From: Candidatus Heimdallarchaeota archaeon LC_2
GTDB taxonomy: Archaea; Asgardarchaeota; Heimdallarchaeia; Heimdallarchaeales; Kariarchaeaceae
NCBI GenBank assembly: GCA_001940725.1
Contig: MDVR01000017.1
Coordinates: forward strand, 5,915 to 69,914
DNA: 64,000 nt
Reading direction: 5' to 3'
In this document: positions 5,930 through 31,061 of the stretch, in pieces
Position numbering within the stretch: the first letter of the stretch is position 1
How the letters are laid out: each line of letters opens with the position of its first letter
Notes under the pieces: model-generated
Seen by the model: only the letters and a program-made list of their open reading frames with translations
Database searches by the model: none
Told to the model about the DNA's origin: nothing
Translations under genes and position numbers: made by a program

Positions 5930-6277
5930 ATGAGTGAATTTGAAGATTTAAACTTTGACGATGCTGTTGAGGAAACCTCCAGCATTAAGAGCAAGACCCC
6001 TGCTAGTTCTAAGACCCCAGCAGGTCAAAAAGTCACAGTGTACTTCCAAAGTACAGTAGGACCCAATCAGAAACAAGAAAAATTAGTTGTTTCTCAAGAT
6101 GCCCCAATTGGCGATATCAAGTACACAGTCGGCCAAATCTTTGGACTCCCGGCTGAAGAATTCCATATATCGCACTCAGGAAGGACCTGCGATCCAGACG
6201 ACACCCTTTCCAACTACGGTGTGGAAAACGGTGATCAATTGCTGCTAATACCTGTATCCACAGCAGGAGCAGTATAA
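5930..6277 (+). CDS. Ubiquitin-like modifier 1, precursor ending in Ala-Gly plus two residues
   Basis: A 115-residue protein: a disordered acidic then Lys/Thr/Pro-rich N-terminus (residues 1-33, with SKTPASSKTPAG) and a beta-grasp domain (34-113). The domain starts with a KVTVYF strand, has the helix GDIKYTVGQIFG, and ends with the strand GDQLLLIPV. The C-terminus is STAG-AV: Ala112-Gly113 stands where ubiquitin has Gly-Gly, followed by Ala114-Val115. By analogy with ubiquitin-family maturation, the JAMM protease encoded in the same operon could remove AV to expose Gly113. The pattern IIP-x4-G plus two residues recalls UFM1 (IIPRDRVG-SC). It is more GC-rich than its neighbours, as expected for a highly expressed gene. 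First gene of the operon, with the best ribosome site in the cluster. Confidence 0.9.
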   Translation: MSEFEDLNFDDAVEETSSIKSKTPASSKTPAGQKVTVYFQSTVGPNQKQEKLVVSQDAPIGDIKYTVGQIFGLPAEEFHISHSGRTCDPDDTLSNYGVENGDQLLLIPVSTAGAV

Positions 6278-6314
6278 GCATGCTTGGCCTATCAATCCGA
6301 TTTGAATAAGCCGC

Positions 6315-6342
6315 GAGTAGATCGATTAATCGATTTCTACTC
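6315..6342 (+). terminator. Imperfect inverted repeat between the two modifier genes
   Basis: The sequence gagtagatcgatt / aatcgatttctactc forms a near-perfect hairpin with two unpaired bases in the 3' arm. It sits in the 100-base gap between the two modifier genes and could attenuate or process the polycistronic mRNA, letting modifier 1 be made in excess. A short TATA-like tataaat follows at about 6350, so a second start of transcription is also possible. Confidence 0.4.
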
Positions 6343-6378
6343 AAAACGTATAAATCGTTGGTCGCTGGTAAAAATATT

Positions 6379-6690
6379 ATGAGTGAAGAATTTGAAGAGC
6401 TTCCTTTCGTGGAGGAAAAAAAACCCGATGAAAGCTCTGATCAACCCATGATCTCATTATATTTCGAGAATACGATCGGTCCGAGTCACAGAAAAGAAAA
6501 ACTTACTGTTAATTCGGAAATGCCAGTGGCTGACCTGAAATACACCCTATCGCAGATCTTTAATCTGCCAAGTGACGAGTTTCATCTCATTCACGGAGGT
6601 ATGACAATGGATAACGAAGATCTCCTCAGCAATTTCAATCTTGCAGAGGGTGATGTATTACTCATCATTCCTGTGACAACGGCTGGATAG
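6379..6690 (+). CDS. Ubiquitin-like modifier 2, pre-matured, ending in Ala-Gly
   Basis: I place the start at ATG 6379, giving 103 residues, because MSEEFEELPFVEE then aligns with the N-terminus of modifier 1 (MSEFEDLNFDD); a TTG at 6358 would add seven residues. The beta-grasp domain (about 25-103) aligns without gaps to modifier 1 and shares YF..T.GP...KEKL, DLKYT..QIF.LP..EFH, and GDVLLIIPVTTAG. It ends exactly at Ala102-Gly103, so no maturation step is needed. Both copies therefore keep an Ala-Gly tail; in this respect they differ from classical ubiquitin, SAMP and Urm1, which end in Gly-Gly. The two may be used on different targets or with different fates. Codon use is GC-enriched like modifier 1. 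Confidence 0.88.
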   Translation: MSEEFEELPFVEEKKPDESSDQPMISLYFENTIGPSHRKEKLTVNSEMPVADLKYTLSQIFNLPSDEFHLIHGGMTMDNEDLLSNFNLAEGDVLLIIPVTTAG

Positions 6691-6733
6691 GGTGTCGATC
6701 CGCAAGGATCATTTACACATGTAGGTAATAAGT

Positions 6734-7975
6734 ATGACAAAAATTGGTTCAAATTTCTTTTCAAATACAGTTGCAGAGAAAGAACTTAGGAGATTAGATC
6801 GTCAGCTACGGCTACCAGGATGGAATCAAGAAACTTTGAAAAAATCAAAAGTCTTGATTGCAGGAATTGGTGGTTTAGGCACTGAAATTGCAAAAAATCT
6901 TGCAATGACAGGTGTTGGAACCATTCACCTGATTGATATGGATATTATTGAACATAGTAATTTGAATAGACAGATTCTATTCACTGATGCTGACGAAGGA
7001 GAACCTAAGGCTGAAATTGCAGCTAAGAACTTGAAAAAGATTAATCCATTTGGTAATTATATACCACATTTTGGTTCTTTGGAGGAACTTGATCCAAGAA
7101 TCTATGAGGAATGTGATCTATATATTGCTGGTTTGGATTCTGTAAAAGCACGGAAAGAATTGATTCGAAGAGCTGTTCATAACCGTAAACCACTGATAGA
7201 TGGTGGTACGGGAAAATGGGCAGGTCATGCATATACTTATTTACCTGGAGAGAACGCTTGTCTTGAATGTGATCCTATGAGAGAACAGGAACGAGAAGAT
7301 CTCGCAGCCTGTACTCTTGTTGGAATTCCCAGAAAGAAAAGTCATGCCTTGTTGAAAGGGCTGTTATATTTTGAATCTAAAATGAATCGGCAACCAAACG
7401 TCAAGAATCTTAAGGAAATGATGATTATGCTCGAATATGCAAATGAGCTTGTTGAAAGACATTTTCCAACACGAAGTAAATTTACTTTGGATGATGCAAT
7501 ACAACAGGTTGATTTTCATGAGCCAACAATCATCACTATCAATGCAGTAATTGCTTCCATTCAATCACAGGAAGCTTTGAAGTTAATTCATCATCTAAAA
7601 GATGTTCAACTTGGAATGTTAAATGATGAATATACAATTTACAATGGTTTAACAGGAAAATTCCATTATATCAAAAAACCAAGAAATGAGAAGTGTACAC
7701 TTTGTAGTAAGTATGCAACAGGTATTGTCAAAATGACAATTCCAGCATCAACTACCTTAGATATACTTCGAGCATTGATTAAGAAAAATGGTTACACTTA
7801 TGATGAAGAATTTCCCCCCAGCTTTTACAAAATTGATGCTTCGGATATGGACATATTAGATGATGCTACAACAATTAAAGAACTGAAGATTCAAAATGGT
7901 GAAACCTTGTTCTTATCAGGACTGACCAAGGATAACAAAGAGACGGACCTCTATGTGAAAATCTATCTTAAATAG
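6734..7975 (+). CDS. E1-like activating enzyme for the ubiquitin-like modifiers
   Basis: A 413-residue single-adenylation-domain E1. Near the N-terminus RRLDRQLRLPGW and the nucleotide loop GIGGLG (residues 44-49) are followed by DMDIIEHSNLNRQ, typical of ThiF/MoeB/UBA folds. Zinc ligands are two CxxC pairs at C176/C179 (CLEC) and C321/C324 (CTLC). A probable catalytic cysteine is C193 in ACTLVGIPR, which resembles the CT-x3-PR motif of UBA3. The C-terminal 85 residues look like a second beta-grasp, equivalent to the ubiquitin-fold domain that recruits E2. It should adenylate the Ala-Gly terminus and pass it to E2 through a thioester. Eukaryotic UBA1 is twice as long; this resembles the UBA3/UBA5 half. 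12 nt before the E2 gene. Confidence 0.92.
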   Translation: MTKIGSNFFSNTVAEKELRRLDRQLRLPGWNQETLKKSKVLIAGIGGLGTEIAKNLAMTGVGTIHLIDMDIIEHSNLNRQILFTDADEGEPKAEIAAKNLKKINPFGNYIPHFGSLEELDPRIYEECDLYIAGLDSVKARKELIRRAVHNRKPLIDGGTGKWAGHAYTYLPGENACLECDPMREQEREDLAACTLVGIPRKKSHALLKGLLYFESKMNRQPNVKNLKEMMIMLEYANELVERHFPTRSKFTLDDAIQQVDFHEPTIITINAVIASIQSQEALKLIHHLKDVQLGMLNDEYTIYNGLTGKFHYIKKPRNEKCTLCSKYATGIVKMTIPASTTLDILRALIKKNGYTYDEEFPPSFYKIDASDMDILDDATTIKELKIQNGETLFLSGLTKDNKETDLYVKIYLK

Positions 7976-7986
7976 GAGAAATTAAA

Positions 7987-8508
7987 ATGAGAAAAAAGAG
8001 AATTATAAAAGATTATGAGATCCTTAGAGGTCTTCACAAAAAGGGTGTAATATCAGGAGTTAAGTCCTTTTCTAATAAGAAAAAGAGTATGGAACATCTT
8101 GCTGTTAGTTTCAAAGGACCGAAAAATACACCATATGCAGGTGGAAAATACAAATTAGAAATTAAATATGGCCCAAATTACCCCATGAGGCCTCCATTTG
8201 TGAGATTACATACACCAATTTGGCACCCCAACTTTTGGCCAAATCCTAAAGAATATCTAGGAAAAAGGAACATCTGTTTAGCATTGGTAGACAATGAATT
8301 AGTGGGAAAACCAAATGGATGGTCGCCATCTAAGAATATTGGAACAGTAATTTATTCGATTCTTGCGATGTTCAATATTGAAGGAGCTTTTGTTAATCCA
8401 AAAGATGTTTTTAACAAAGACGCAGCAATTGAATTTCTTAATAAAAAGAAAAATTTTGTTAAGAAGGCAAAAAATGTAAATAAAAAATATGCGAAATCAT
8501 ATTGGTAA
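7987..8508 (+). CDS. E2-like ubiquitin-conjugating enzyme
   Basis: A 173-residue UBC-fold protein. The core has FKGPKNTPYAGGKYKLEIKYGPNYPMRPP, then the HPN motif (H80-P81-N82) and the thioester cysteine C97 in NICLALV, followed by NGWSPSKNIGTVIYSI, which matches the WSPA-x-x-I-x-x-VL element of canonical E2s. The C-terminus is a Lys-rich helix (KKKNFVKKAKNVNKKY), which could contact acidic partners or be modified itself. It receives the modifier from E1 and transfers it to lysine, perhaps assisted by the RING-like membrane protein two genes downstream. An aggag Shine-Dalgarno motif lies just upstream and the gene ends one codon before the ribosome site of the JAMM gene. Confidence 0.93.
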   Translation: MRKKRIIKDYEILRGLHKKGVISGVKSFSNKKKSMEHLAVSFKGPKNTPYAGGKYKLEIKYGPNYPMRPPFVRLHTPIWHPNFWPNPKEYLGKRNICLALVDNELVGKPNGWSPSKNIGTVIYSILAMFNIEGAFVNPKDVFNKDAAIEFLNKKKNFVKKAKNVNKKYAKSYW

Positions 8509-8521
8509 GGAGTTGTTTTGT

Positions 8522-9226
8522 ATGGAAAAGAAATTAGGAGTTAAGAATTATGAGGATATTCTTGAGAGACTAGATGAACTCGAAGAGAAATTCGATTTTG
8601 TTCTTAATCTTGGTGCTCACCATAAAGAAGCAGAAGTATTAGATCCGACCCCATCAATCGATATCGAAGAAAGAATTGAGGTTGAGATTAAACCAAGTGC
8701 ATATCTTAAAATGGCCTTACATGCCATTAAATATGCAAATGCAGATATTCCAAAAGAAGATTGGGTTGAAGTAATTGGTTTAATGACTGGTAAGATAGAG
8801 AATGCAGGAACACCATTGGAATTAATAACCGTTAACGATTATTGGGCTATCGGAACGGGTGATGCAGTGAGTGTTAATATTCTTAATGCAGAACCAGTGA
8901 TGGATGTATACAAGAACAAACCAAAAAATGATTTTATTGTGGGTTGGGCACACAGTCATCCTAGTTACACACCATTTTTGAGTCAAGATGACATAAATAC
9001 TCAATCAAGGTATCAGGCTCTTTGGGAAGATTCAATTGCAGTTGTTATTGATCCAACTATGATCACGAAATTCAATCCAGGACATTCTATTTTTAGATTG
9101 ACAGAAACTCGTGATGTTTATTATGAGGTGAAAACCAAGATTGGAGGCATGTCAGCATCTGCGGCCTACGAGGCATTAAACCTATTGTTAAAAGAAAAAG
9201 GAATTAAGGCCGAGCAGTTTAATTAA
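8522..9226 (+). CDS. JAMM/MPN+ metalloprotease (Rpn11-like deconjugase)
   Basis: I place the start at ATG 8522, preceded by aaggag, giving 234 residues; an ATG at 8489 would run through the E2 gene. After a predicted N-terminal coiled coil (about 5-30) comes an MPN domain with the complete JAMM zinc site: E83 in VEVIGLM, then H144-x-H146 with P, seven residues to S154, and D157. This is the HxH-x7-SxxD motif of Rpn11/CSN5. It should cleave after the terminal Gly, maturing modifier 1 and removing modifiers from targets. Family members in eukaryotes act within the proteasome lid; here no lid partner is nearby. The N-terminal coiled coil could dimerise or tether it. Confidence 0.93.
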   Translation: MEKKLGVKNYEDILERLDELEEKFDFVLNLGAHHKEAEVLDPTPSIDIEERIEVEIKPSAYLKMALHAIKYANADIPKEDWVEVIGLMTGKIENAGTPLELITVNDYWAIGTGDAVSVNILNAEPVMDVYKNKPKNDFIVGWAHSHPSYTPFLSQDDINTQSRYQALWEDSIAVVIDPTMITKFNPGHSIFRLTETRDVYYEVKTKIGGMSASAAYEALNLLLKEKGIKAEQFN

Positions 9227-9251
9227 TTTATAGTAAACAAGGTGAGAACGA

Positions 9252-10421
9252 TTGGAACTTAATAAATCAACTACATTTCTTTCGATTGGAATTATAGGTG
9301 TTGTTGTTGCAGCTCTTTATTTCGGAAATGATAATTCGTCCTCTGCTTTTTTTGCACTTTTTGTGACAGTTTATACTTTAGCAAGTTTACGATTTTTCCT
9401 TGAATGGAAGTACTACAGAAGACACAGAGCAATCCTTGCAAGTTTAGAATTTGTCTTACTACCCTTTGCGATTCTTGTCAGTGGTATGTACATGAGCTTC
9501 CAAATCAATACGACTGTAATTGTAGAAGGCAATCTACTTCTTTTTACTGAAGAGAGTTCTAGGATTTTTATTAATTTAATTTCTTTAACTTTAATTCCTC
9601 CCTTGATAGTTCTTCAAAGGTTATTCTTTTTCTATCATTCCAAAAGATGGGATGGATTCGCAATGAGAAGGGAACTTTATCGTTCTCGGAAAGTTCCATA
9701 TTTGATAAATTCAATTCTAGCATTTTCGCTGTTTTATTTAGGATTGTTCCAGCACAGATTTGATGTCATAGCCTCTTTATTTGTTATTCTCTGGATTATT
9801 CACACTTTTAAATATTACATCATGTCGCAATTTGGAGGTATTAGAAATCAAACGAGACAATTAGATGCACTTCTAACAAATACAGATCAATATTCACGTG
9901 GATCTGCTAGATCAAGAACAGATAGTATTCAAACTGAAGGATCAAAAAGAAGAAGTGGTACTATTCCAGTTAATTCAAGATCAGGACCAAGAACTGTTTC
10001 AGCTCAGCACAAAAATGCAAGACAGATTTCATCATCATCCAAAAAACAAACCCAAAAGAAAGGTTCCAGAAAATCTAGATCCAGATCATCAATACATGTT
10101 GATCCTGGAAATGAGTTAAAAACTTTAAGCCATACAGCAAAAATAAATGGCGATATTAGTAAAATGCTTCCAACCGGAAGGGTTGACAAATCAGATCTTT
10201 CTTGCATGTTTTGCTATGAAGAATTTAAACCAAGTGACAAAACAATTGTTCTCTGTCCCCATTGTAAATTTCCTGGTCATGCTAATGAGTACACATCTTG
10301 GATACAGGTTTCTAGTCTCTGTGCTCGTTGTTCACAACCAATTGCAAAAAGTGAACAAACTAGACCTAAATATAGTATCTCCGCAAAAGATTATGTCAAC
10401 AAGGTGATAAAGAAACTATGA
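9252..10421 (+). CDS. Polytopic membrane protein with C-terminal RING-like zinc domain, candidate E3
   Basis: A 389-residue protein with a TTG start preceded by aaggtgag. Residues 1-190 contain about six hydrophobic helices. A strongly basic, Ser/Arg/Lys-rich disordered linker follows (about 217-287). The C-terminal domain has C318-x2-C321, C335-x2-C338, H343 and C357-x2-C360, with TSWI between H343 and the last pair; this looks like a cross-brace RING or treble-clef variant (CPHC...H...W....CxxC). Fifth gene after modifier 1, in the same operon. The most economical role is a membrane-anchored E3 that recruits E2 to the cytoplasmic face and marks membrane proteins. Only seven clear ligands are seen, so a simple zinc ribbon remains possible. 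Confidence 0.75.
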   Translation: MELNKSTTFLSIGIIGVVVAALYFGNDNSSSAFFALFVTVYTLASLRFFLEWKYYRRHRAILASLEFVLLPFAILVSGMYMSFQINTTVIVEGNLLLFTEESSRIFINLISLTLIPPLIVLQRLFFFYHSKRWDGFAMRRELYRSRKVPYLINSILAFSLFYLGLFQHRFDVIASLFVILWIIHTFKYYIMSQFGGIRNQTRQLDALLTNTDQYSRGSARSRTDSIQTEGSKRRSGTIPVNSRSGPRTVSAQHKNARQISSSSKKQTQKKGSRKSRSRSSIHVDPGNELKTLSHTAKINGDISKMLPTGRVDKSDLSCMFCYEEFKPSDKTIVLCPHCKFPGHANEYTSWIQVSSLCARCSQPIAKSEQTRPKYSISAKDYVNKVIKKL

Positions 10422-10520
10422 AGGGGATAATTATTGATTGTGTACTGTCAAATCGATGGGTAAAAATATCTAAAACACACAAATATAATTATCATAAATT
10501 ACATTTGAGAGGTGTTGTCA

Positions 10521-10901
10521 TTGAGTAAAAATAGCAAAAACTTGAGATTATCTTTTTCCGCATGGCAAGAATTGAGGTTAATCAAGTTTCGAATGAAATT
10601 GACAACATATTCTGAACTTTTAGAAATCGTATTAAACGAATACAAAGGTGAAAGTTCCCTTTCTGATGATGTAAGAATGAAACCTCCTACTGATGGAGGA
10701 GATTTAGAATCCATTAAAGATATGAACAAAGCGGATAAGACAATCGTGGTAAGTGAAAAGATACACAATGGTATTCTTGACATGAAAAATGAATATATGA
10801 TTGCTAAAGGATTTGCATCAAGAGGCCCCAATGCGGTTTCAATTTCTGATATCATGCTTGATCTTCTGAAAAAATTCAAAGATAAGCATCAAATTAATTG
10901 A
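10521..10901 (+). CDS. Tandem ribbon-helix-helix-like DNA-binding protein
   Basis: TTG at 10521, preceded by gagaggtg, gives about 126 residues. Two stretches look like related strand-helix-helix units: LRLSFSAWQELRLIKFRMKL with SYSELLEIVLNEY-type helix (residues about 8-45), and KTIVVSEKIHNGILDMK...SISDIMLDLLKKF (about 75-120). Such folds bind operators, often as dimers; a tandem pair would make a pseudo-dimer. A TATA-like caaatataatta lies in the 100-base gap before it, so it may be transcribed apart from the ubiquitin-like operon or control it. Function is inferred from shape, not from a strong family match. Confidence 0.45.
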   Translation: MSKNSKNLRLSFSAWQELRLIKFRMKLTTYSELLEIVLNEYKGESSLSDDVRMKPPTDGGDLESIKDMNKADKTIVVSEKIHNGILDMKNEYMIAKGFASRGPNAVSISDIMLDLLKKFKDKHQIN

Positions 10902-10910
10902 GGTATTGAT

Positions 10911-11561
10911 ATGGGACTGTTTGGCAGAAAAAAAGAAAAAATTAAATCAAAAGTACCAGGAGAAAATGTCACACAAAAGTCTCCTACCCAAAAAATTCCT
11001 AAGGATACAATTCAAAAATCGAAAATACCAAAACAAAAAATACCAAAACAGACTAAGGAATCATTTATACCTCCTGAGAAGATAAAAAATCAGAACCGTG
11101 TGAATAAGGTAAAACCTTCCAAAAATAACATCGGAAAAAATATTCAGTTCTATGATTCAAGTCTACCAGGATCGACACGAAAAGTTGGAAAGTCCCTCGA
11201 AAAACCCCAAAAAACATCTTTCAAGGGTCATGATAGATTTATAGCAAAATCTTTACCATATAATACTAAACGAAATCGAAAATTATCAAAATCAGAACAA
11301 AAACCAACTGCAGTTAAAATTTCGAAAAGTATTCCTAAAAGTGATATTAAGGATAAATCACCTAAATCTATTAAATCGAAAACTCCCGATAAATTCTCTT
11401 CAATTTTGATTTCAAAAAATCCACAAAGCAAAACTAAATTAGAGCCTATAACTAAAGATCTTGAGTCCAAGATACCCAAACAAAAAATATCAGGTGGAAA
11501 TGAAATTAAATCTAAAACACCGAAGCAAAAAGTACCTAAACAAAAAATACCTAAGGATTAA
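10911..11561 (+). CDS. Lysine-rich disordered protein with KIPKQ repeats
   Basis: A 216-residue, highly basic, low-complexity protein beginning MGLFGRKKEK. It is dominated by Lys, Pro, Ser and Thr, with repeated KIPKQ / KSKTP / KVPKQ motifs concentrated at residues 25-50 and 180-216. No globular domain is evident. It begins nine bases after the RHH-like gene and so lies at the end of the ubiquitin-like gene run. The KSKTP motif also appears in the N-terminal tail of modifier 1. The high lysine content would suit a modification target or a nucleic-acid-binding tail; both are inference. Confidence 0.6.
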   Translation: MGLFGRKKEKIKSKVPGENVTQKSPTQKIPKDTIQKSKIPKQKIPKQTKESFIPPEKIKNQNRVNKVKPSKNNIGKNIQFYDSSLPGSTRKVGKSLEKPQKTSFKGHDRFIAKSLPYNTKRNRKLSKSEQKPTAVKISKSIPKSDIKDKSPKSIKSKTPDKFSSILISKNPQSKTKLEPITKDLESKIPKQKISGGNEIKSKTPKQKVPKQKIPKD

Positions 11562-11562
11562 A

Positions 11563-12144
11563 TCAAACAAAAAAGCCAATTAATCCAATTGTAGCAAAAA
11601 ATATTGCAAATATCACTAGAAAAGCATTTTCTAAAATAACAAGACCTACTACTAAGAATAGGATTGGAATGATAATACTAAGAAGTAAACCGGTAAATTT
11701 TGCAGGAAAACCCCTTTCGCTATGTCCATGAAGACGAATAAATGGATATCTTAGATAAGATCGTAGAAGTAAAAATGTAGAGAATACAAAATATGGAAGC
11801 AATCCTAGATCAAAAAAATCAACTGACAATTCAATTCTATCTCCAATACCCTCAATATGAAGGCTAAACAACTCGTTAAATTCTACCTCAAGAGCGTGTT
11901 TTGCCATAACTTGTAGGATTATTGAAATTGGAAGAAATATCACAAATGATACTTCATTAAATGTTGCTTGATGTCGAAGGTAGTATAAAGTTTTCAAAAG
12001 ATAATATGATGCTAAAAATGCAATCAGAGCCATTAATAAAAATGATCGGCCAGTTTCATTATCATTTTCAATAAAATTAAAGATAGATGCACCAACAAAA
12101 CCCAATCCAATTAAGAATGAGTAAGTTGTGTAAGCAAAATTCAT
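11563..12144 (-). CDS. Multi-pass membrane protein, unknown function
   Basis: A 193-residue protein with about six hydrophobic helices, and a short soluble basic loop (YLRYPFIRLHGHSERGFP) between the fourth and fifth. No family is recognised. It is convergent with the Lys-rich gene, with the stop codons almost touching. ATG start at 12144. Confidence 0.6.
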   Translation of the reverse strand: MNFAYTTYSFLIGLGFVGASIFNFIENDNETGRSFLLMALIAFLASYYLLKTLYYLRHQATFNEVSFVIFLPISIILQVMAKHALEVEFNELFSLHIEGIGDRIELSVDFFDLGLLPYFVFSTFLLLRSYLRYPFIRLHGHSERGFPAKFTGLLLSIIIPILFLVVGLVILENAFLVIFAIFFATIGLIGFFV

Positions 12145-13792: not shown

Positions 13793-14278
13793 ATGTCAGA
13801 AGAATTTTCATTATTGGAGGAATTCCAAGATCAGCTTGGATACACTTTTTCTAACCTTGGATACCTAAATCAAGCCCTTACGACAAGATCCTATAGCAAT
13901 GAGCATTTGGATGAAAAACATAATGAATCATTGGCTACATTGGGAGATGCTGTTGCTAAAATTATCATTACGCACCATGCAATTACTACGTTAAACATGA
14001 CAACTAAAGGAGCAATCACGGATTACAAGAATAAATTTGAAACAAGAGAAAATTTTACTGTAAGATTTTTGGCATACTTTCCTGAAATAAATTCAGATGA
14101 AAGTGTTATATTACAATTGCTGAGATTTGGTAAAGGGGAAAAAGAAAATCGACAATACTTAGAAAATAATTTCTTTGGTGAATTATTAGAGGCGCTATTT
14201 GGTAGCATATTTCTAGATACTTATAGTGATTTAGTCAGAACAAGTGTTGTAATAAAGAGAATATTAAGAATTAAATAA
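13793..14278 (+). CDS. Divergent single-domain RNase III-like protein
   Basis: A 161-residue protein covering an RNase III catalytic-domain fold with no dsRNA-binding domain. The N-terminal LGYTFSNLGYLNQALTTRSY and the C-terminal FFGELLEALFGSIFLD match the family start and end. The signature is altered: NESLATLGDAV replaces NERLEFLGDAV, so the first catalytic Glu is Ala48 while Asp52 remains; at the second pair the Asp is Glu130 and the Glu is kept at E133. RNase III is uncommon in archaea. The protein may be a dimerising, RNA-binding or weakly active relative. ATG at 13793; an in-frame micro-ORF upstream ends at a TAA ten bases before it. Confidence 0.7.
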   Translation: MSEEFSLLEEFQDQLGYTFSNLGYLNQALTTRSYSNEHLDEKHNESLATLGDAVAKIIITHHAITTLNMTTKGAITDYKNKFETRENFTVRFLAYFPEINSDESVILQLLRFGKGEKENRQYLENNFFGELLEALFGSIFLDTYSDLVRTSVVIKRILRIK

Positions 14279-15407: not shown

Positions 15408-15992
15408 TTAGTAAAATTCACTTAATGAAGTCTGTATACTGTTTTTAATAACATCAACCTCCAATTCAAGCAATTTTTTCTTCCTCCATAATCCCCCTCC
15501 ATAACCATGTAATTGTCCATCTGCATTAATGACTCTATGACAAGGAATGATGATTGGAATGCTATTCTTCCCATTGGCAGCACCCACCGCCCTCATGGCT
15601 TTAGGATTTCCAATTCTCCTGGCTAATTCTCCATAGGAAATCGTTTCACCATATGGTATTTTCAATAATTCATTCCATACTTGGATTTGAAAATCTGTGC
15701 CTTGCAAAAACAATGGAATGCTGAATTCAATTAATTTTCCTTCAAGATAGAGATTAATTTCGGTTTCAATTTTTGTATGTAATTTATTTTTGCGATTTAC
15801 ATAATTAATAGAAAATATTTGTTTTTTCTTTTGTATTGTATCCTCGGCAGTTCTTCTATCCTTGAATTCAAATAAGCAACATTTCTCATCAACTGTACCA
15901 CAGATAAAGGTCCCTATCGTAGTTTCAATATCGTAAACTTCAATAACAGGAATTGATAGGTCGGGTGTTGTTTCAGTCATTTCAAGAACCAT
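15408..15992 (-). CDS. ogt: O6-methylguanine-DNA methyltransferase (AdaB/Ogt)
   Basis: A 194-residue suicide alkyltransferase that takes methyl groups from O6-methylguanine. The C-terminal domain carries the active cysteine C151 in IIIPCHRVI, the helix-turn-helix SYGELARRIGNPKAMRAVG, and the final GYGGGLWRKKKLLELE. The start at 15992 overlaps the adaA stop by 11 bases and has an aggag ribosome site inside adaA, so the two genes are translationally coupled. The split AdaA + AdaB arrangement is like that of Bacillus, which suggests transfer from bacteria. Confidence 0.93.
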   Translation of the reverse strand: MVLEMTETTPDLSIPVIEVYDIETTIGTFICGTVDEKCCLFEFKDRRTAEDTIQKKKQIFSINYVNRKNKLHTKIETEINLYLEGKLIEFSIPLFLQGTDFQIQVWNELLKIPYGETISYGELARRIGNPKAMRAVGAANGKNSIPIIIPCHRVINADGQLHGYGGGLWRKKKLLELEVDVIKNSIQTSLSEFY

Positions 15993-16536
15993 TTAATAAT
16001 TCTCCTGGATTTTTGCCAAATTCATTGTAAAATGCAGAACGGAAACCAGATAAAGAAGAAAAACCGGTCAAATAGGGGATATCCAATAAGGATTCCCCTT
16101 CATGTAACAGTTCTTTAGCGTGTTCTAACCGAATGGTTCTATGATAACTGTTTAAAGTCAAATCTAAATAATTCTTGAAATATCTTCCAATTGTTGATAT
16201 GTTTACTTTGGTCAGGATTTCCAACTCCTTTAGATCGAGTTTTCTATCTTTGATTGAGTTGACCAACTCTAATAGTGGATCAAACCATGAGGGTTGAGTA
16301 ACAGGATAAAATTCTGATTTGCACCTTTTACAACCTCTTAATCCAAATTTGATGGCTTCATCTCGGCTTTCGAACATCTTAACGTTTTTTCTAAATGGCA
16401 TTTTTGCTTTGCATGAAGGTAAACAATAAATTTTTGTTGTCAAAACCCCAAGATAGAATTTTCCATCAAATTTTCCATCACAATCAGCACAAAGTTTGAA
16501 TAAATCTTCTTCGTTCATACCTTCTATGGAGAGCAT
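15982..16536 (-). CDS. adaA: AdaA-like methylphosphotriester sensor and AraC-type regulator
   Basis: A 184-residue protein with two parts. Residues 1-78 are the Ada N-terminal zinc domain with four cysteines at C38, C42, C69 and C72, the same positions as in E. coli Ada. Residues about 85-184 are an AraC-type helix-turn-helix domain (ILTKVNISTIGRYFKNYL, then TGFSSLSGFRSAFYNEFGKNPGELL). Methylation of C38 by DNA phosphotriesters normally turns such proteins into activators. It should induce itself and the coupled ogt gene after alkylation damage. Confidence 0.92.
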   Translation of the reverse strand: MLSIEGMNEEDLFKLCADCDGKFDGKFYLGVLTTKIYCLPSCKAKMPFRKNVKMFESRDEAIKFGLRGCKRCKSEFYPVTQPSWFDPLLELVNSIKDRKLDLKELEILTKVNISTIGRYFKNYLDLTLNSYHRTIRLEHAKELLHEGESLLDIPYLTGFSSLSGFRSAFYNEFGKNPGELLNGS

Positions 16537-27240: not shown

Positions 27241-28200
27241 ATGTCAAGTAGAGGATATCAAAAAAATGGCAAAAGGAGATCGGTTATAGACGATCCGAAT
27301 TTGGTCAAATTATCCTCAGGAGAGAGAATGTCAAATTATTCATCTCAATTAATAATGGATTTTAACATTACACCAAAGACGAGCATTTCAGAAAAAACAT
27401 TCATTAATTATGATGAAATGGAATTGAATCAACATTTAATTGATCTCTGGGCAGTATTAAGAAAAATTTTTAAGGTAGTATTTATTACAACAGTAATAAT
27501 TTTAATACTTCCAGGTTATGCTGATAATAAAATTTTACTTGACCCTTATAAACCTGCAATTCTACAGCTTTTAAATTTAATAATAGGGTATACGCTTGAT
27601 TCGTTAAGTAGAGGTGGAGACGTTCAAGTTTTTATTGGTTCGCCTTTAGCTCCAATTACATTTTATTTGAATCTGGGTGCATTTGTTGCGGTTTTAATAT
27701 CGCTCCCAGTTACTGTTAAAGAATTAATGTCTTTTATTCGTCCAGGATTAACTGATAAAGAATGGGAAATTATGAAGTCATTGACCAGAATTGCTGGAGG
27801 ACTATTTGTTCTTGGTGCTTTTGTCGCTTATTTTATTATTATGCCTGTGACGCTTAGGATTCTTGCAATTTCGGGAGGGGTGATAGGTGAAGGTGAATTA
27901 CTTCAAATGTATAGTCTTGATTCTGTTCTTAGTCTCCTTTTGTGGGGTACTTTGGGAGGTGGATTGTTATATGCAAGTCCAGTAGTACTATTAGCTTTAA
28001 TTGATTTAGAAATCATGACCCCAGATCAAATTGCAAATAGAAAGAGAGAAATTATTTTTGGTATTTTTGTTATTGCTGCATTTGTTACACCAGATCCAAC
28101 CATAGTTTCTATGTTAATATTATCATTCCCAATGATTATAATCATCGAATTTATTATTGCTATGGGGTATAAAATAGAACTTGACAAACTATTAGGTTGA
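27241..28200 (+). CDS. tatC: TatC twin-arginine translocase receptor with long N-terminal extension
   Basis: A 319-residue protein. Family features: an acidic motif near the start of the core (ELNQHLIDLWAVLRK), a periplasmic-type loop, SFIRPGLTDKEW, and AAFVTPDPTIVSMLILSFPMIIIIE. About six membrane helices are present. The first 70 residues form an unusual soluble Ser/Lys-rich extension before the normal TatC start, absent from typical bacterial TatC of about 250 residues. It binds the twin-arginine signal together with TatA. 20 bases after tatA, in the same operon. Confidence 0.92.
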   Translation: MSSRGYQKNGKRRSVIDDPNLVKLSSGERMSNYSSQLIMDFNITPKTSISEKTFINYDEMELNQHLIDLWAVLRKIFKVVFITTVIILILPGYADNKILLDPYKPAILQLLNLIIGYTLDSLSRGGDVQVFIGSPLAPITFYLNLGAFVAVLISLPVTVKELMSFIRPGLTDKEWEIMKSLTRIAGGLFVLGAFVAYFIIMPVTLRILAISGGVIGEGELLQMYSLDSVLSLLLWGTLGGGLLYASPVVLLALIDLEIMTPDQIANRKREIIFGIFVIAAFVTPDPTIVSMLILSFPMIIIIEFIIAMGYKIELDKLLG

Positions 28201-28205
28201 TATTT

Positions 28206-29420
28206 ATGACAGATACACGATTATTTGCTTGGTTTACAGTTTCATTGGGATTTTTAATTTTATTCCCAATAATTAGAAAAGTTCTCAATCCAAAAAATTC
28301 TACAATTTTGGATGAATTAATTAAATCATTGATCTTTACAGAATTGTCATCAATCTTTGTAGTATACTTGTATTTATCTGAATCAATTAAATCGCCAGAA
28401 TTTCTTTTCTTGTTAATTTTAATAGCATTCATATATTTTTATTCAGGATTTAATAAGACCCTGTATTCATGGAGTACTCCAAAAAGTAAAATATCAACAT
28501 TCAACCATGGAATACTTAAACGAATTGGGCGTTCCTTTGGAGGTTCTAAAGTTGAAAGTACAGAATATGGCTATACATTTACCGCGGTAACACCTTATAG
28601 ATTAAAATATCGAATAGATGCAGTTTCATATCAAAAAGACAATTCAAGTAATTTTATTATAACATCAGAAACACATAATTTTACAATTATTAAAGTGATC
28701 AACTTAATAGCATTGTATTTGATGACTCAATCTCTAATTTCAAATGAAGAAGAAGTAAATTTTCCATTATTTAATATTGAAACAAATGCAGTTTTAGTGG
28801 TTTTATTTAGCATCAGTTTGACCTTAATTATCTTGTATATTGAGATTGATATCGCCAAAAATATGGTAAATACTCTCCCAACCATATACGCAAAATTGCT
28901 ACAAAACGAAGCATTATCAAAATTACCTGGCTCGGGAACTAGTTTGGCTGATAGAAAAGATGATGTTAAAGGTAGAGCTCAAGCGATACTAGATAGAAGA
29001 AATAGTAATGTCTTGAGGGCGAAAAAGGAAGAAGTTGAAGGGAAACTAAGTTCAGTTTTTGGTGAAAAAGAAACTGTTCCTTTAGATAAAAAATCAATTG
29101 TAAGAATGCGATTAATGGAAACAATTAAGCGGATTCTAAATTCAACACCACCTTGGTCTAAAGTATCATTAAAAGAAATTGCCGAACTTGGAAAAGGGAA
29201 AGAGGAAGAAGTTGAGATTATAATTGCAGGTCTCATTGATTTGAAAGAAGTTAAAGGAATTTACGATATATGGAATAAAACCTACCATGGAACCTCGTCT
29301 TCACACTGGTTAATAACCAAAATTTTAAATGAATTGCCAGATACAGATACTTCGTTAGAAAATGTCAAGATCCATCCAGATGGTGCAGGTGAATTCTCTT
29401 TTAATAAAAAAGAAAAATAA
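28206..29420 (+). CDS. Membrane protein with C-terminal winged-helix-like domain in the tat operon
   Basis: ATG at 28206 is six bases after the tatC stop. About 405 residues: two pairs of hydrophobic helices (near 5-20, 40-75, 160-180 and 200-225) separated by a soluble domain. A cytoplasmic part follows, with a charged coiled segment and a final domain of winged-helix shape (SLKEIAELGKGKEEEVEIIIAGLIDLKEVKG). Membrane-bound wHTH proteins can act as regulators or as protein-interaction modules similar to PCI domains. Its place after tatC suggests a role in Tat regulation, but no family is recognised. Confidence 0.6.
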   Translation: MTDTRLFAWFTVSLGFLILFPIIRKVLNPKNSTILDELIKSLIFTELSSIFVVYLYLSESIKSPEFLFLLILIAFIYFYSGFNKTLYSWSTPKSKISTFNHGILKRIGRSFGGSKVESTEYGYTFTAVTPYRLKYRIDAVSYQKDNSSNFIITSETHNFTIIKVINLIALYLMTQSLISNEEEVNFPLFNIETNAVLVVLFSISLTLIILYIEIDIAKNMVNTLPTIYAKLLQNEALSKLPGSGTSLADRKDDVKGRAQAILDRRNSNVLRAKKEEVEGKLSSVFGEKETVPLDKKSIVRMRLMETIKRILNSTPPWSKVSLKEIAELGKGKEEEVEIIIAGLIDLKEVKGIYDIWNKTYHGTSSSHWLITKILNELPDTDTSLENVKIHPDGAGEFSFNKKEK

Positions 29421-29438
29421 TCTAGAGTTGAATTATTT

Positions 29439-31061
29439 ATGAAAATTTATTGTAAGCTATTCTTTATCATTTCACTTTTATTATTTTCCTCTTCTATTCT
29501 AATATTACCTATTACTGCCTCACTAGAAACCGACATTCAAATCAGATATCCAAGTGAATACAATTTATCACAATTTTCATTTAATTCTAGCGATTTCATT
29601 GAGGATATTATTTCTGAATTAGAAAGGGAAGCTGTATATGAAAATGAAAAATTACTTGGATGGCCATTTAGATTAAATGGTCCATTTGAGAATCATGAGA
29701 GGATGTATCGAGGATATAATGTGGGGATGGCTGGTATTGGTGAATTTCTGCTTAATGCTTATAATAAAGGATATAATAAGTCCAAGCCCTTGCTTGATGA
29801 TATTATTACACATTTTATAGAAAATGCAGAACTTAGTCTTGGAGGAGGTCATTATTGGGGTAGGTTTTCTAATGAAGATACTGGAGGTTGGACAGGCCTT
29901 AGATATGGGAATGCGGGCATTATTAAATTTCTATCGAATATAGACAAATCAAATTACAATACAAGCTTAACAACTCTAATTGAAAGTGGATATACATTTC
30001 TGAAATCATTACAGTTGGATGACGGATCTTGGCCAATGACTGAAAATGGATACATTACTACAGACACACAATATGGTGCTGTTGGAATTGGAACTTCTTT
30101 CCTAGAATTATACCAGAATACAGGAAATTCTACTTATTATGATGAAGCAACCAATATTGGAAACTACTTAATTAATAATGGATACTGGGAAGAAGATCGA
30201 TTTCTAATCCCCTGGACACCACAAGCCATTGAATCTGAATTTGATGGATTAATCGTTTATGGCAAAAGTGGTGGATTAGCTGGTATAATTGACTATCTTA
30301 ATAAATTATATCTATTGACACTAAATCATACTTTTCTTGATACATCAATTGGACTGGGGAAATCGATATTATATTCGGATTTAGGGGGTTATTGGCCAGA
30401 TGGATCTGTTTCTTATGTTTCCAGAATTTATACTAGTAATATCGCATTAACAGGCTACGATGTCGGCTCTAGTGGCATCGCGGTTAGTTTACTTGATTTA
30501 TATGATACCATGGATTCCGAACAAATATCACAAAATCAGATATTGGAGGCTAGTGCAAGAGCAGAAAAATTTGTTCTTGCTTTGTTGAACGATGACTATA
30601 GTCTTCCAGTTGGATTAGCCTATCAGATGAATAAAATAACTGGAAAAAGTTTAGGGTCAGCTGGCCTTGCACTTCACCAACTTGAACTTTATGAGAGATA
30701 TGGAACTCCTCGTCATATGGATTTAGCAATTAATATTTTTAGTCACCTACATGATTTATTTAAATCAAATACTGGATTACCTTTAGACGAAAGTGATATT
30801 GTATACGGATATTCATTCAACTTGGAGGATGGAATAGCTGGAATAGGAAACATACTTCTGTATCTAGAGTCAGTATCTCCCAAAAACTCGGGATATGAAT
30901 ATGAGGAGATTTATACAAATATGGTGCCTAATCTATCTTTACCAGAGACAACCAATGAAAATTCGAATTCCTCTAAAACAACGTTCAATCCTATTCTTTA
31001 TAATTTCATAATCATTTTCACAATGATAATTATTACCGTGAAACGTCTGAAATACAAATAG
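29439..31061 (+). CDS. Extracellular LanC-like alpha/alpha-toroid protein with membrane anchor
   Basis: A 540-residue protein with a Sec signal peptide (no twin arginine), seven repeated helical-hairpin units each marked by a G-x-x-G-x type turn (GMAGIG, GNAGI, GAVGIG, GLAGI, GSSGIA, GSAGLA, GIAGIG), and a C-terminal membrane helix (FIIIFTMIIITVKRLKYK). Seven such turns are characteristic of LanC-like toroids. The zinc ligands of LanC cyclases (two Cys and a His in WCYG/CHG) are absent: the only Cys is in the signal peptide. It is therefore probably a sugar- or peptide-binding relative or a glycoside hydrolase-like enzyme working outside the cell. Confidence 0.72.
   Translation: MKIYCKLFFIISLLLFSSSILILPITASLETDIQIRYPSEYNLSQFSFNSSDFIEDIISELEREAVYENEKLLGWPFRLNGPFENHERMYRGYNVGMAGIGEFLLNAYNKGYNKSKPLLDDIITHFIENAELSLGGGHYWGRFSNEDTGGWTGLRYGNAGIIKFLSNIDKSNYNTSLTTLIESGYTFLKSLQLDDGSWPMTENGYITTDTQYGAVGIGTSFLELYQNTGNSTYYDEATNIGNYLINNGYWEEDRFLIPWTPQAIESEFDGLIVYGKSGGLAGIIDYLNKLYLLTLNHTFLDTSIGLGKSILYSDLGGYWPDGSVSYVSRIYTSNIALTGYDVGSSGIAVSLLDLYDTMDSEQISQNQILEASARAEKFVLALLNDDYSLPVGLAYQMNKITGKSLGSAGLALHQLELYERYGTPRHMDLAINIFSHLHDLFKSNTGLPLDESDIVYGYSFNLEDGIAGIGNILLYLESVSPKNSGYEYEEIYTNMVPNLSLPETTNENSNSSKTTFNPILYNFIIIFTMIIITVKRLKYK

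What the first reader, a model, noticed from the sequence alone, without database searches (positions are those of the whole stretch)
5930..10421. Complete ubiquitin-like cassette with Ala-Gly modifiers and a membrane RING-like E3 candidate
Two beta-grasp modifiers, an E1 with a UBA3-like ACT-x3-PR cysteine site, an E2 with HPN and thioester Cys, a JAMM protease with an intact HxH-x7-SxxD site, and a six-helix membrane protein with a RING-like domain lie in one operon. The sequence shows the parts; that they form one conjugation cycle is inference from gene order and known ubiquitin-family chemistry. The RING-like protein being membrane-embedded would direct modification to membrane proteins.
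Basis: partly seen in the sequence, partly recalled or inferred. Interest (0 to 1): 0.9.

Follow-up and report, generated by a model that had tools for sequence, protein, structure and literature searches.

The report
Asgard second ubiquitin-like tagging system
This archaeal gene cluster looks like a complete protein-tagging system related to ubiquitin, with a tag ending in Ala-Gly and a membrane-embedded ligase candidate; relatives occur in many Asgard genomes, often beside an ordinary ubiquitin, so parallel tagging pathways may be older than eukaryotes.

Summary
5930-10421 encodes two ubiquitin-fold modifiers ending Ala-Gly, an E1, an E2, an Rpn11-like JAMM and a six-helix membrane protein with a RING-like domain predicted to face the cytosol. 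It is not local: in 82 loci (the window plus 81 selected genomes of one phylum) JAMM lies directly upstream of the membrane RING in 81 and E2 upstream in 78. Of 120 modifier relatives 118 end AG, none GG.

The E1s fall on two sides of one branch (100/99). Gate residues differ: Gln with Arg72 in the ubiquitin set that has its own E1, Tyr with Ala/Val/Ser72 here. A TQAGG-type ubiquitin (12 genomes) does not fit that rule.

A [ST]KTP motif in the modifier tail recurs in a neighbouring gene. The RING has Glu as sixth ligand and no linchpin Arg. Conjugation, membrane targets and E3 activity are inferred.

The parts
5930..6277 (+). modifier 1, ubiquitin fold, 115 aa, pro-form ending STAG-AV
   Evidence: PF00240 2.3e-6; AF2 beta-grasp core, residues 51-110 at block pLDDT 91-93, N-tail under 55 to residue 30; Foldseek best hit a Caldiarchaeum ubiquitin chain 1.4e-7
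5990..6019 (+). two SKTP motifs in the disordered N-tail of modifier 1
   Evidence: read; two or more [ST]K[TVIS]P in 96 of 120 modifier relatives
6379..6690 (+). modifier 2, ubiquitin fold, 103 aa, already ending TTAG; no SKTP tail
   Evidence: PF00240 9.2e-6; 52% identical to modifier 1
6734..7975 (+). E1, single chain: ThiF domain, Cys domain, and a C-terminal part that looks ubiquitin-fold-like by eye
   Evidence: best PDB match UBA3 of NAE 2.3e-37; profile UBA3 3.1e-51; the C-terminal part has only a weak YukD hit, 0.23
7232..7234 (+). Tyr167, at the UBA3 Arg190 / yeast Uba1 Gln576 gate position
   Evidence: alignment printed; by pattern, Tyr in 65 of 68 E1-B, Gly in 1, no pattern match in 2
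7310..7312 (+). catalytic Cys193 in AC[TS]xxGxPR
   Evidence: motif in 68 of 68
7987..8508 (+). E2, HPN 80-82, catalytic Cys97
   Evidence: UQ_con 4.3e-24; best PDB UBE2T 7.7e-16; HPN and NICL in 193 of 193
8522..9226 (+). JAMM metalloprotease, Rpn11-like
   Evidence: JAB 2e-12; best PDB Caldiarchaeum Rpn11 homologue 5.5e-15; HSHP-x6-SxxD in 79 of 79 over 180 aa
9252..10421 (+). six-helix membrane protein with C-terminal RING-like domain, candidate E3
   Evidence: 6 helices, N-in/C-in by charge; JAMM directly upstream in 81 of 82 loci
10203..10331 (+). RING-like domain, C-x2-C-x13-C-x2-C-x4-H-x2-E-x3-W-x6-C-x2-C
   Evidence: Glu in 81 of 82, Trp in 80 of 82; aligns with the small RING beside GG ubiquitin
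10911..11561 (+). K/P-rich protein with five SK[TVI]P motifs; linked accessory gene, possible substrate or scaffold
   Evidence: 0 of 2000 shuffles reach 5; genes with the same motif lie beside a modifier gene in other loci, there mostly divergent, here not
11563..12144 (-). RING-less paralogue of the membrane domain
   Evidence: membrane-RING profile 4.7e-6; a second RING-less hit in 12 of 83 sequences scanned

Best explanation
The cassette is one copy of a widespread Asgard ubiquitin-like conjugation system ('system B'), separate from the ubiquitin system found in many of the same genomes. Proposed cycle: the JAMM trims the short tail after Ala-Gly on the pro-modifier (modifier 1; modifier 2 is encoded mature); the single-chain E1 adenylates the AG end and takes it on Cys193, its gate selecting modifiers without Arg72; the modifier passes to Cys97 of the E2; the RING-like domain, held at the cytosolic face of the membrane on a long flexible linker, recruits the charged E2, so that conjugation happens at the membrane; the JAMM takes conjugates apart. 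The [ST]KTP tail of modifier 1 and the motif-sharing neighbour are a linked acceptor or docking element. Shown: genes, motifs, conserved order, separate E1 branch, matched change of gate and position 72. Inferred: every chemical step, membrane targets, role of the motif.
For: Catalytic motifs kept in 68 E1s, 193 E2s, 79 JAMMs. AG end in 118 of 120 modifier relatives. JAMM directly upstream of the membrane RING in 81 of 82 loci, E2 in 78, modifier and E1 also upstream in 54. E1-A and E1-B on two sides of one branch, 100/99. Gate: Tyr in 65 of 68 E1-B; position 72 Ala, Val or Ser in 100 of 104 AG-ending modifiers, never Arg or Lys; Gln in 31 of 31 E1-A and Arg72 in 29 of 29 of the RT[TKE]GG ubiquitins. 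Residue 72 is the published gate between NAE and UAE (PMC3731359, passages). RING-type E2-contact residues kept: Ile or Phe before the second Cys in 79 of 82, Trp in 80 of 82; E2 loop WSP[SAT] in 186 of 193; the matching residues matter in the Caldiarchaeum cascade (PMC5654768, passages). 31 of 48 genomes with a GG ubiquitin also hold this cassette.
Against: No biochemistry exists here. The RING lacks Arg/Lys at C8+1 (Asn, Ser or Asp in 80 of 82, Ala and Gly in one each), where R69A impaired the small archaeal E3, and has Glu as sixth ligand. E1s prefer Gly75, and CsRpn11 cuts a penultimate-Ala mutant slowly (PMC3731359, PMC6043591, passages), so AG needs adapted enzymes. Twelve GG ubiquitins read TQAGG, with Thr72 and no E1 or E2 hit in the stretch fetched (up to 3 kb each side, some cut by contig ends); there E1-B might serve both. 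The strongest ubiquitin-family hit (L117) reads RSIAG plus eight residues beside a long-branched E1; it fits neither class and I left it out of the 29. E1-A also matches UBA3 strongly (196.9 bits, against 177.4 for E1-B), so UBA3 likeness does not single out E1-B. The membrane model is modest (mean pLDDT 64, RING part about 75-85). No complex could be predicted.
Confidence: 0.72

Rival explanations
1. This is simply the ordinary Asgard ubiquitin operon already reported.
For: Asgard ubiquitin/E1/E2/RING/JAMM gene clusters are in print (PMC5654768, PMC6043591, PMC9192718). No second E1 was seen beside the TQAGG ubiquitin. Which ubiquitins the published surveys counted could not be read here.
Against: 31 of 48 genomes with a GG-ending ubiquitin also have this cassette; the E1 beside RT[TKE]GG ubiquitin is on another branch; C-terminus, gate and RING architecture differ.
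Confidence: 0.15
2. The membrane RING-like protein is not an E3 but a membrane anchor or inhibitor that holds the E2 without activating it.
For: No linchpin Arg/Lys after C8 and Glu as sixth ligand.
Against: E2-facing Trp and hydrophobic residue kept in 80 and 79 of 82; an Arg just before C8 in 82 of 82 could stand in; homology to the small RING E3.
Confidence: 0.25
3. The modifiers are sulfur carriers (MoaD/ThiS/Urm1-like) and the E1 works without conjugation.
For: ThiF/MoeB similarity of the E1.
Against: The E1 aligns through the Cys domain to UBA3; an E2 with HPN and Cys lies beside the JAMM and RING wherever the contig reaches that far.
Confidence: 0.04
4. It is an anti-phage Bil/CBASS-like conjugation island.
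For: PADLOC E1-E2 models hit the E1 (3.3e-17); bacterial Bil operons with Ubl, E1 and E2 exist (PMC11354881, passages; their JAMM is recalled).
Against: UBA3 is a far better match (2.3e-37); modifiers, E2 and membrane RING have no PADLOC hit up to 0.1 and the JAMM only 0.0025; E1-B falls in a few deep, well-supported clades, though no species tree was compared.
Confidence: 0.05

Closest known systems
Caldiarchaeum subterraneum ubiquitin operon (CsUb, E1, E2, srfp, CsRpn11)
   Same: Same five roles in one cluster; pro-modifier with tail, Rpn11-like JAMM, RING with an extra Cys and the Trp; reconstituted in vitro (PMC5654768, passages).
   Different: CsUb ends Gly-Gly; its RING protein is small; here AG ends, a membrane RING with Glu as sixth ligand and no C8+1 Arg.
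Asgard GG-ubiquitin system of the same genomes
   Same: Ubiquitin fold, in the RT[TKE]GG set an E1 nearby, in some loci E2 and small RING.
   Different: Arg72, E1 with Gln gate and AC[TS]P[FL]G site (25 of 31), no membrane RING seen beside it.
Eukaryotic NEDD8 system (NAE/UBA3)
   Same: E1-B's closest PDB relative is UBA3; position 72 small instead of Arg.
   Different: AG not GG, gate Tyr not Arg190, no APPBP1-like gene noticed in the cassette; E1-A matches UBA3 as well; descent not tested with eukaryotic sequences.
Prok-RING_1 / small RING finger proteins
   Same: Same ligand spacing and Trp.
   Different: Fused to six membrane helices; sixth ligand Glu instead of His; below Pfam cut-offs in the window copy and five other relatives scanned.

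Membership tests
Archaeal ubiquitin operon (Caldiarchaeum type) | ubiquitin-fold modifier, E1, E2, RING, JAMM clustered | tested here: met
Archaeal ubiquitin operon (Caldiarchaeum type) | di-glycine C-terminus of the modifier | tested here: not met
   AG in 118 of 120, one truncated, one AD; 0 GG
Archaeal ubiquitin operon (Caldiarchaeum type) | E1 catalytic Cys, E2 HPN and Cys, JAMM HxH-x7-SxxD | tested here: met
   68 of 68, 193 of 193, 79 of 79
Archaeal ubiquitin operon (Caldiarchaeum type) | ATP-dependent conjugation in vitro | not testable with these tools
   no assay
RING E3 ligase | cross-brace RING fold | tested here: inconclusive
RING E3 ligase | eight Cys/His zinc ligands | tested here: not met
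   sixth is Glu in 81 of 82, Ala in 1; whether Glu binds zinc is not testable here
RING E3 ligase | linchpin Arg/Lys after the eighth ligand | tested here: not met
   0 of 82 at C8+1
RING E3 ligase | E2-contact hydrophobic residue and Trp | tested here: met
   Ile/Phe 79 of 82, Trp 80 of 82
NEDD8 pathway | UBA3-like catalytic E1 | tested here: inconclusive
   UBA3 is the best PDB relative of E1-B but E1-A scores UBA3 higher still; no tree with eukaryotes
NEDD8 pathway | GG end with Ala72 | tested here: not met
   position 72 fits (Ala 69, Val 24, Ser 7 of 104), GG does not
NEDD8 pathway | APPBP1 partner and cullin substrates | not tested
   no genome-wide search made

The most novel reading that the evidence does not exclude
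Asgard archaea already ran two orthogonal ubiquitin-like codes: a Gly-Gly ubiquitin with Arg72 and a membrane-tethered Ala-Gly modifier with Ala/Val72, kept apart by the same E1 gate that separates ubiquitin from NEDD8. The Ala-Gly system carries its own conjugation address, the [ST]KTP motif, shared by the modifier's N-tail (chains) and a dedicated coiled-coil or K/P-rich partner built with the same motif (substrate or scaffold).
Probability: 0.35. Interest if true: 0.93.

Novelty: new variant of a known kind. Interest (0 to 1): 0.78.

Why it matters
It would show that splitting one conjugation chemistry into parallel, non-crossing pathways, and placing one at the membrane, may predate eukaryotes. 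The two E1/modifier pairs make this directly testable with purified proteins and single-residue swaps. Conjugates ending in Ala-Gly would not carry the Gly-Gly remnant that ubiquitin proteomics looks for, so they could be missed.

Tried and rejected
Ordinary-operon reading: rejected as sufficient after finding the GG ubiquitin in the same genomes. Defence island: PADLOC weak. Unrelated zinc ribbon: disfavoured (fold comparison weak). ESCRT link: 20 window proteins outside the cassette were scanned with Pfam, none was ESCRT; not every window ORF was scanned. Thorarchaeota: at least two E2 relatives carry that name, not followed. Fold of the membrane domain: only generic helical matches. Eukaryotic placement of E1-B: not attempted for lack of a reference set. 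Papers on PDB entries of putative ubiquitins 8hm1-3/8ypt: the five papers listed were unrelated.

Not-in-print claim: the AG end, the second E1 branch and the membrane RING described together were not seen in searches (listings and abstracts), all in an open-licence library without readable supplements. Spang 2015 is not held; Zaremba-Niedzwiedzka 2017 was not looked up. Seen of papers: PMC5654768 passages and section 21; PMC6043591 passages; PMC9192718 abstract, passages, sections 6 and 10; PMC3731359 and PMC11354881 passages.
Full report
OBSERVATION. Six genes run head to tail on the + strand from 5930 to 10421. Modifier 1 (5930-6277) and modifier 2 (6379-6690) match the ubiquitin family at 2.3e-6 and 9.2e-6; the E1 (6734-7975) matches ThiF at 5.3e-55; the E2 (7987-8508) UQ_con at 4.3e-24; the JAMM (8522-9226) JAB at 2e-12. 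Best solved relatives by sequence: UBA3 of the NEDD8 E1 (2.3e-37), UBE2T (7.7e-16), the Caldiarchaeum Rpn11 homologue (5.5e-15). Modifier 1 is modelled as a beta-grasp with a disordered N-tail, with a Caldiarchaeum ubiquitin chain as best fold match.

THE MEMBRANE PROTEIN. 9252-10421 has six hydrophobic helices; the positive loops and the C-terminal part lie on the same side, so the RING should face the cytosol (simple hydropathy and charge). The same count over 82 copies, the window's included, gives 4 to 6 helices in 80 and none behind residue 230 in 81. Residues 208-300 are disordered in the model. The RING spacing is C-x2-C-x13-C-x2-C-x4-H-x2-E-x3-W-x6-C-x2-C. Over the 82, the sixth ligand is Glu in 81 and Ala in 1, and the Trp is kept in 80. 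The small RING beside the Asgard GG ubiquitin aligns over the whole domain and has His at that place and Arg, Lys, Gly or Ser after C8 (seven sequences). Here C8+1 is Asn, Ser or Asp in 80 of 82, Ala in one and Gly in one, and an Arg precedes C8 in 82 of 82. So the domain is a RING by homology, with an unusual ligand and no classical linchpin. Pfam finds no RING above its cut-off in the window copy or in five other relatives scanned; in four of the five it lists nothing at all up to 0.01. Of the 12 relatives in the protein database three have source names: two hypothetical protein, one RPC12/RpoP.

DISTRIBUTION. One genome-contig scan with the E1 gave two loci, a Heimdallarchaeota (L001) and a Lokiarchaeota (L002); L002 has the same order modifier-E1-E2-JAMM-membrane RING. 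A profile search of 227 genomes of L002's phylum hit 153 at E<=1e-3, but that count includes small RING proteins. I fetched the surroundings of 80 of the better matches, a selected set. With L002's genome that makes at least 81 of 227 genomes with the gene, and with the window 82 loci. JAMM is directly upstream in 81, gap median 26 nt between frames; in the exception, L090, it overlaps the RING frame. E2 is upstream in 78; in the other four (L071, L083, L085, L088) the contig ends inside the JAMM. Modifier and E1 are also upstream in 54 by script (L090 would be the 55th); in many Heimdall-type loci they stand downstream of the RING instead, and some contigs end before them.

THE ALA-GLY END. 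One search found 123 relatives and listed 120. Of these, 118 end AG with 0-13 further residues; one is truncated and one reads AD. None ends GG. Thirty-nine carry no tail; the rest would need trimming. Published work makes this notable: CsRpn11 cuts a penultimate-Ala mutant of CsUb at a much slower rate, and eukaryotic E1s strongly prefer Gly75, though NAE tolerates Ser (PMC6043591 and PMC3731359, passages).

A SECOND SYSTEM. Searching the same 227 genomes with the ubiquitin family gave 165 with matches. I read a GG end in 48 genomes: 29 loci ending RT[TKE]GG (L118-L146), seven more of that type and twelve of a TQAGG type that includes L002's own genome. Thirty-one of these 48 genomes also have the cassette among my fetched loci. 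Of the other 17, G001 has the modifier and E1 genes on L001; seven (G042, G044, G047-G050, G053) had membrane-RING matches that I did not fetch; nine showed only weak matches there (best E 3.1e-6 to 6.3e-10). L117, the top ubiquitin-family hit, reads RSIAG plus eight residues and is in neither class. All ten genomes searched with the E1-B profile hold an E1-B (in G122 only its C-terminal part) and at least one further ThiF-type match, not all of which need be E1s. In a tree of 50 rows E1-A (27) and E1-B (23) fall on two sides of one branch, support 100/99; A_L117 and A_L140 are long branches.

THE GATE. In PMC3731359 (passages) residue 72 is the gatekeeper: NAE accepts Ala, Val, Leu, Ile, Ser and others but no positive charge; Uba3 Arg190 and yeast Uba1 Gln576 line the pocket. 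At that position E1-A has Gln in 31 of 31, and the RT[TKE]GG ubiquitin has Arg72 in 29 of 29. E1-B has Tyr in 65 of 68 (Gly in one, two unmatched by the pattern), and position 72 of AG-ending modifiers is Ala 69, Val 24, Ser 7, His 2, Ile 1, Phe 1 of 104. Positions were read by motif pattern, not from a complex. Against generality: the TQAGG ubiquitin has Thr72 and no E1 within the stretch fetched (12 of 12). Against a special NEDD8 kinship: E1-A matches UBA3 with more bits than E1-B does, though its best match is UBA1.

THE MOTIF. The modifier's disordered tail carries [ST]K[TVIS]P, at least twice in 96 of 120 relatives; none of 29 GG ubiquitins has it. Of 1282 ORFs of 90 aa or more in the 80 loci, 52 have two or more SK[TVI]P: 32 are modifiers, 20 are unassigned; those I read in full are K/P-rich or coiled coils. 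A looser scan found 42 unassigned ORFs with four or more K[TVIS]P, 37 of them divergent from a modifier gene and within 235 nt; in many L002-type loci that modifier gene is an extra copy upstream of the cassette. Clustering of neighbours gives a coiled-coil family in 36 and a K/P-rich family in 14 of 83 sequences. In the window the likely counterpart is 10911-11561, with five motifs, but it lies behind the RING gene on the same strand. In ten such ORFs tested, the window's included, 0-7 of 2000 shuffles reached the observed count. Acceptor site, docking site or kinase site are all open.

MECHANISM AND NOVELTY. I take this to be a second, membrane-placed ubiquitin-like cascade kept apart from ubiquitin by C-terminus and E1 gate. 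Every chemical step is inferred from family knowledge. Asgard ubiquitin operons as such are known (PMC5654768, PMC6043591, PMC9192718). What I did not find in print, within the searches named under Tried and rejected, is the AG family as a separate system, its membrane RING and the shared motif.

Noticed in passing
L002:40-828 (-): Divergently transcribed protein with two N-terminal membrane helices and a C-terminal ubiquitin-like domain without the AG end; a similar opposite-strand hit lies upstream of the modifier in many L002-type loci.
   Followed up: partly
L086:9666-11420 (-), L087:2-1096, L091:6399-7268, L094:9745-10650: Larger ORFs (290-585 aa) with a C-terminal ubiquitin-like end reading ..AG; fused or self-conjugating modifiers?
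   Followed up: no
L153-L164: TQAGG-type ubiquitin of about 85 aa with no E1 or E2 hit in the stretch fetched; its activating enzyme is unclear.
   Followed up: partly
L117:1465-1752 (-): Top ubiquitin-family hit of the phylum search reads RSIAG plus eight residues, beside a long-branched E1.
   Followed up: partly
window 11563-12144 (-): RING-less paralogue of the membrane domain; in several Heimdall-type loci such a gene sits directly behind the RING gene.
   Followed up: partly
window 10512-10901: 129-aa protein between the RING gene and the SKxP gene, no Pfam match above cut-off; looks like a small DNA-binding protein by eye (recalled pattern).
   Followed up: no
window 13793-14278: RNase III-like domain (1.4e-12).
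   Followed up: no
window 15408-16536 (-): Ada zinc-binding/HTH protein next to an O6-methylguanine methyltransferase.
   Followed up: no
window 27241-31061: TatC homologue, then a protein without Pfam match, then a LanC-like protein.
   Followed up: no
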